The translations under genes and the position numbers were made by a program. 16,050 bases of DNA from positions 1 to 16,050 of the forward strand of contig CAMNZV010000016.1 in NCBI GenBank assembly GCA_946575275.1, in the 5' to 3' direction. The DNA is from an uncultured Clostridium sp. GTDB taxonomy: Bacteria > Bacillota > Clostridia > Clostridiales > Clostridiaceae. The notes below the pieces were generated by a model that searched no databases, was not told the origin of the DNA, and saw only the letters and a program-made list of their open reading frames with translations. Shown here in pieces: positions 12,454 through 13,332 of the stretch. Every line of letters begins with the position of its first letter. Within the stretch, counting starts at the first letter, position 1.

Positions 12454-13332
12454 CTATATAACTAATAATTTTTCCATTTTAAACCCTTCATAATTAAGCT
12501 TTCCAAGTCCAATAAAATTATTATTTTCATCATAAACCTTATAGAGAGTTTCTTTTTCTATTTTATTATCAGTTAATCTTTTATCATATACATTAACACC
12601 ATTAATTAGTAATTTTGAGTAGCCTTTATTAATAGTTAATTTAGGATAATCATTTAAAGCCTCATCTATTGAAATAATATGTTTATTAATATTTTCTTCG
12701 TTTAAATCATTTATATTAATACTGTCTTCTTCTCTAAATGAAGCTGTCATTGTCCTTTTAAGTTCTGTTACAGTACCTGACACCTTTAATAAATTTCCAA
12801 TATCATAACATTATCTCCTTATATATGTTCCCTTAGTACAAGTAACTTCCATAGATACATAAGGCATTTCAATTTCAATATTTCTAATGTCAAATATATT
12901 AATTTTCCTGCCCTCTCTATCTATTTCAATGCCTTGCCTTGCTAAATCATAAAGTCTTACTCCATTTTTCTTAAGGGCTGAATACATAGGTGGAACCTGT
13001 ATGTATTCACCTTTAAAATGCATAATTGCATCTATTATCATATTATTATCTAAATGCGTTATATCCTTTCTTGAAACCACATCACCCTCTAAATCATAGG
13101 TGGTAGTTTCAAGTCCAAGTTGAAATTTCACATAATAACTTTTTTTTGCAGTCATTATATAGTCAATGATTTTAGTAGCTTTTCCAATACATATTGGAAG
13201 CACACCTGATGCCTCTGGGTCTAATGTACCAGTATGTCCAACCTTTTTAGTATTGGCAACCTTCTTAACTATCCTTACAACATCAAAGGATGACATTCCT
13301 TTATTTTTAAAAACATTTATTACACCATTCAT
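12454..13332 (-). pseudogene. truB: tRNA pseudouridine(55) synthase with an in-frame premature stop
   Basis: TruB makes pseudouridine 55 in the T-loop of tRNA. The N-terminal 173 codons read normally: GVINVFKNKGMSSFDVV, then VGHTGTLDPEASGVLP with catalytic D38, then PPMYSALKKNGVRLYDLARQ. At TCTKGTYIRR the frame meets TAA (12811-12813). The same frame then continues for 118 codons with family-typical sequence, CYDIGNLLKVSGTVTELKRT, and a C-terminal PUA-like part (KLLINGVNVYDKR, IGLGKL) to the normal stop at 12454. Read through the TAA, the protein would be about 292 residues, the expected size. Relatives have IRSLC here, so both the second R (for S) and the stop (TTA to TAA would be one change) are abnormal. 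Truncation would remove the last part of the catalytic domain and all of the C-terminal domain. A recent nonsense mutation or a sequencing error fits best; two separately translated pieces are less likely, as the 3' piece has only a poor GTG start (12783). Confidence 0.8.

What the first reader, a model, noticed from the sequence alone, without database searches (positions are those of the whole stretch)
12454..13332. truB interrupted by one in-frame TAA in the conserved KGTYIR region, with the rest of the frame intact
Directly visible: the frame from 13332 meets TAA at 12811-12813, then continues without another stop for 118 codons to 12454, and the residues after the stop (CYDIGNLLK...ELKRT) are those expected of TruB. 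The codon pair that should be Ser-Leu reads AGA TAA. A single T-to-A change turns TTA into TAA, but the neighbouring AGA also departs from Ser, so at least two nearby changes are implied. Possible explanations are recent loss of psi55 synthesis, a sequencing or assembly error, stop-codon read-through, or a two-piece enzyme. TruB loss is tolerated in some bacteria but is unusual in a tight essential-gene operon. The frame upstream, including D38, looks conserved, which points to a recent event.
Basis: partly seen in the sequence, partly recalled or inferred. Interest (0 to 1): 0.72.

Follow-up and report, generated by a model that had tools for sequence, protein, structure and literature searches.

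The report
Premature stop in one truB copy
One draft genome of a Clostridium-like bacterium shows a stop codon inside an otherwise intact tRNA-modification gene, while a near-identical protein and the related species examined have the gene whole, so this is most likely a local error in the draft or a recent private loss, and is ordinary.

Summary
The truB frame from 13332 (minus strand) meets TAA at 12811-12813, directly after KGTYIR-R, then runs 118 more codons that match TruB.

The interpretation shrinks under comparison. The window lies in a fragmented draft genome: 2.0 Mb, 327 contigs, 71% complete. None of the truB matches in 67 other species genomes of the genus contains a stop. A near-identical protein, P0001, on another contig, is full length; it differs from the window frame at 4 of 292 positions, three of them within nine residues at the stop. 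Flanking proteins differ at 1 of 308 and 2 of 335 residues. No second truB was found in this incomplete genome, and no ochre-suppressor tRNA among 12 tRNA genes in 38% of it.

The draft holds a second anomaly, a break in prkA; another species' draft has an interrupted pnp.

Best reading: a local base-level error in the draft. Next: a recent, strain-private null allele. Read-through or a two-piece enzyme is not supported. Raw reads, not available here, would decide.

The parts
12814..13332 (-). truB, part before the stop (173 residues; TruB_N catalytic part incl. TGTLD and KGTYIR)
12811..12813 (-). in-frame TAA
   Evidence: no stop in the truB matches of 67 of 67 other species genomes nor in P0001
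12814..12816 (-). codon 173, Arg where the 29 aligned relatives have Ser
12454..12810 (-). truB, part after the stop (118 codons plus TAG; rest of TruB fold and C-terminal domain)
   Evidence: 117 of 118 residues equal to P0001
11518..12444 (-). ribF, downstream neighbour, intact; 307 of 308 residues equal to P0121
13334..14344 (-). nrnA (DHH phosphoesterase), upstream neighbour, intact; 333 of 335 compared residues equal to P0241

Best explanation
The stop is most likely a local base-level error in the draft sequence, for example a consensus taken from few or poor reads or from mixed strains. It lies in an otherwise ordinary, full-length truB of the infB-rbfA-nrnA-truB-ribF-rpsO-pnp operon. 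In the living population the gene would make the usual 292-residue TruB that turns U55 of tRNA into pseudouridine. Shown: among the genomes examined the interruption is private to this draft, the differences from an intact near-identical copy are clustered at the stop, and the draft has another break. Inferred: that the cluster is an error and not a real mutation.
For: Fragmented, 71%-complete draft; longest of the 60 contigs fetched is 27,208 bases. P0001, near-identical and full length, exists on a contig of 49,139 bases. Three of its four differences from the window frame fall within nine residues; random placement gives this in 0.75% of trials. Neighbouring proteins show 1 of 308 and 2 of 335 differences. 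In the 30-genome alignment this genome's only private departures at otherwise invariant truB columns are the two residues at the stop. None of the truB matches of 67 other species genomes has a stop. The draft also breaks prkA: the first part runs into unrelated sequence, while the end of prkA starts at base 1 of another contig.
Against: No reads or coverage were available, so an error is not shown directly. The draft is not riddled with breaks: of 140 orthologue pairs (50,118 residues) with relative G061, truB and prkA are the only interior interruptions that stood up. Private residues in pnp (6) and infB (5) are each fourth highest of 30, below the top values of 13 and 9, so no clear excess; a count of 2 in truB is shared by two other genomes. 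The prkA break is a join, a different kind of fault. A real multi-base mutation would leave the same pattern.
Confidence: 0.58

Rival explanations
1. A real, recent null allele: this strain truly carries the stop, makes a 173-residue fragment without the end of the TruB fold, and lacks most psi55. The gene has had no time to decay.
For: Both flanking parts are nearly unchanged, as a recent event predicts. Published deletions show that truB can be lost: deletion mutants were made in Vibrio cholerae, with psi55 absent from most tRNAs (PMC12588516, passages seen), and in Mycobacterium tuberculosis (PMC10531406, passages seen). Near-identical proteins of the neighbours differ at single residues too, so strain variation exists.
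Against: Seen in one draft only; near-identical relative intact; truB matches of 67 of 67 other species without a stop; several changes clustered at one spot.
Confidence: 0.38
2. A functional stop: TAA is read through, or translation restarts downstream and two pieces form the enzyme.
For: The frame after the stop is open for 118 codons and conserved. A purine-rich AAGGAG stretch precedes the stop, and an in-frame GTG lies at 12781-12783.
Against: No stop in the truB matches of 67 relatives or in P0001, so no sign of selection for it. The two ATGs right after AAGGAG are out of frame and end after 2 and 6 codons (reading). The GTG start would drop the first nine residues after the stop. TAA is the commonest terminator among the listed frames of the window, 9 of 15. 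No ochre-suppressor tRNA among 12 tRNA genes in 762,221 of 2,005,525 bases.
Confidence: 0.02
3. A second, intact truB elsewhere in the genome relieves this copy.
For: The draft is only 71% complete, so a missing copy cannot be excluded.
Against: One match only in the own genome by protein and by DNA. In the genus, 67 of 68 genomes (this one included) show one match each; the second match in G071 is a 26-residue piece at a contig end.
Confidence: 0.02

Closest known systems
TruB, tRNA pseudouridine(55) synthase (NCBIfam TIGR00431; Pfam PF01509 plus PF16198/PF09157)
   Same: Both parts of the frame match TruB families, in order, in the expected operon (expectation recalled); the intact relative P0001 aligns over residues 2-280 with the solved TruB chain 1r3e
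   Different: One in-frame TAA at residue 174, in this draft only among those examined
Nonsense pseudogene / draft-genome sequence error
   Same: Single private interruption, rest of frame intact, intact copy in kin
   Different: Nothing that sets it apart, except that several differences cluster at the stop
Programmed stop read-through or split gene
   Same: Conserved open frame after the stop
   Different: The stop itself is not present in the matches of 67 relatives, whereas such systems would be expected to keep it

Membership tests
TruB | Catalytic domain with TGTLD aspartate | tested here: met
   TruB_N E 1.9e-57; D38 present. Catalytic role of this Asp is recalled.
TruB | Uninterrupted frame through KGTYIRSL to the C-terminal domain | tested here: not met
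   TAA at 12811-12813; met in 67 of 67 other species genomes over the stretch matched, one of which (G068) matched only residues 1-255, and in P0001
TruB | Makes psi55 in tRNA | not testable with these tools
   needs RNA
Draft-sequence error | Reads disagree with the consensus | not testable with these tools
   no reads held
Draft-sequence error | Seen in one draft, intact in a near-identical copy | tested here: met
Recent null allele | Little decay outside the lesion | tested here: met
   171 of 172 and 117 of 118 residues equal to P0001; an error predicts the same
Programmed read-through / split gene | Stop conserved among relatives | tested here: not met
   0 of 67
Programmed read-through / split gene | Suppressor tRNA for TAA | tested here: inconclusive
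   none among 12 tRNA genes, but only 38% of the draft scanned

The most novel reading that the evidence does not exclude
A natural Clostridium strain that has truly and recently lost TruB in the middle of its translation operon: a psi55-poor population living beside intact kin.
Probability: 0.35. Interest if true: 0.25.

Novelty: not a real feature. Interest (0 to 1): 0.08.

Why it matters
As a likely draft error it matters mainly as a caution: single in-frame stops in fragmented genomes need read support before a loss of function is claimed. If real, it would be one more case showing that TruB can be lost in nature without immediate decay of its operon.

Tried and rejected
Second truB: none found. 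Stop shared by relatives: none. General excess of broken genes in the draft: not seen. The survey took frames of 100 or more residues from the held stretches of G061 (749 frames), kept only those with a match of at least 55% identity in the 60 contigs of this draft, and dropped frames whose match overlapped one already counted; 140 pairs remained. Nine were flagged. Four have the stop within the last 8 or first 10 residues of the G061 frame (L076 2526-3401, L085 5266-6153, L069 7491-8030, L104 6660-7487), one at residue 3 of 120 (L083 14310-14669, rbfA), and two are frames that overlap longer open frames on the other strand (L069 17925-18356 and L076 865-1176). That leaves truB and prkA. Reverse survey, own frames against G061: 132 pairs, 5 flagged, 4 by stops within the first 40 residues, 1 by a frame change.

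Source of the altered stretch: a 14-base stretch over the stop occurs once more in the 60 contigs, just in front of an ATG, as an apparent ribosome-binding site. Copies of 12-base stretches at this place (3 at most) are not unusual for the gene (median 2, up to 19), so this was dropped. A plasmid DNA search gave two matches covering 11% of the query. Literature: searches for TruB + pseudouridine + dispensable (10 of 47 listed), MAG + premature stop + assembly errors, pseudogenes + MAG + sequencing errors + frameshift, truB + pseudogene (10 of 14 listed). I saw these listings, and passages of two papers; none of what I saw speaks of this locus.

Full report
Observation. The minus-strand frame starting at 13332 encodes 173 residues of TruB, meets TAA at 12811-12813 just after KGTYIR and one further Arg, and continues for 118 codons to TAG at 12454-12456. 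The two parts match the N-terminal and the C-terminal TruB families respectively. At the composition of the fetched contigs, 118 open codons have a chance of about 5e-5.

Setting. The window is the whole of contig C16 (16,050 bases) of a draft of 2,005,525 bases in 327 contigs, 71% complete. Named relatives are mostly Clostridium. The gene order infB-rbfA-nrnA-truB-ribF-rpsO-pnp is read from the frames; only truB was scanned against family libraries, ribF and nrnA relatives carry those names, and the other names are recalled from their sequences.

Relatives. All 68 genomes of the genus that were searched, this one included, hold truB; only this one has a stop inside the match. One of the others (G068) matched only residues 1-255. 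A search with the part before the stop in this genome and 39 relatives (24 of the genus, 15 of the order) matched in 40 of 40. A protein search with the part before the stop brought P0001: 292 residues, full length, longest contig 49,139 bases. Its source is not shown; only the best 120 of 7,983 matches were listed, and the next best is 81% identical. P0001 differs from the window frame at residues 166, 173, 174 (the stop) and 233 only. Three of four within nine residues occurs in 0.75% of random placements. NrnA (P0241, longest contig also 49,139 bases, so probably the same contig) differs at 2 of 335 residues, RibF (P0121) at 1 of 308. So the stop region stands out from the ordinary differences nearby. 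These are amino-acid comparisons; the DNA of that contig was not available, and that P0001 comes from the same species is inferred from the identity.

How clean is the draft? I compared frames of relative G061 (798,997 bases in 60 stretches) with 60 contigs of this draft (762,221 bases): 140 pairs, 50,118 residues, nine flagged. After setting aside start and end differences and antisense frames, truB and prkA remain. prkA (name recalled) is cut after about 224 residues and runs into unrelated sequence in contig C37, while residues 337-642 begin at base 1 of contig C234. That looks like a faulty join, although a real rearrangement is not excluded. In alignments of 30 of the 68 genomes the draft's private departures were 2 in truB (exactly the two residues at the stop; two other genomes also have 2), 6 in pnp and 5 in infB, fourth highest of 30 in each of the latter. 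So the draft looks fairly clean, with isolated faults. Interruptions occur in other drafts: the pnp match of species G001 contains three stops and is split into two pieces, 1 of 68 genomes for pnp, against 1 of 68 for truB and none in the main infB matches of the 68.

Mechanism. A living cell with this sequence would make a 173-residue piece that lacks the last part of the TruB fold and the C-terminal domain; I expect it to be inactive (inference). Rescue by read-through is unlikely: TAA ends 9 of 15 listed frames here, and no ochre-suppressor tRNA is among 12 tRNA genes in the 38% of the draft scanned. Restart is poorly served: the two ATGs after AAGGAG are out of frame, and the GTG at 12781-12783 loses nine residues after the stop. 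The stop was found in no relative examined, so there is no sign that selection keeps it.

Loss of TruB itself is tolerated in published deletions: V. cholerae (PMC12588516) and M. tuberculosis (PMC10531406), passages seen. A real null allele is therefore possible, and I give it 0.38. The clustering and privacy of the differences in a fragmented draft put a local sequence error first, at 0.58. Only the reads can separate the two.

Verdict. Correct observation, ordinary cause. Interest 0.08.

Noticed in passing
L104 (G000:C37) 3936-4619 and L188 (G000:C234 from base 1): A prkA-like protein (name recalled) is cut after about 224 of 642 residues and runs into unrelated sequence; residues 337-642 start at base 1 of another contig. 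Probable faulty join in the draft.
   Followed up: partly
G001:C1:77961-80056: pnp of another species' draft is split in two pieces with three stops inside the match: an interruption in a conserved gene of a 99%-complete draft.
   Followed up: no
window 16032-16037: Two neighbouring infB residues near the very end of the contig depart from 29 of 29 aligned relatives; could be an end-of-contig fault or a lineage change.
   Followed up: no
P0053, P0112, P0058, P0027, P0089 (protein search): Five of the 120 listed TruB relatives are only 179-250 residues long; P0053 ends soon after the same KGTYIRSL motif. Contig ends, frameshifts or real truncations were not told apart.
   Followed up: no
window 1-5033: Cluster that reads as a polyamine pathway (PLP decarboxylase, saccharopine-dehydrogenase-like, speE, Orn/Lys/Arg decarboxylase, speD), names recalled from the translations.
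   Followed up: no
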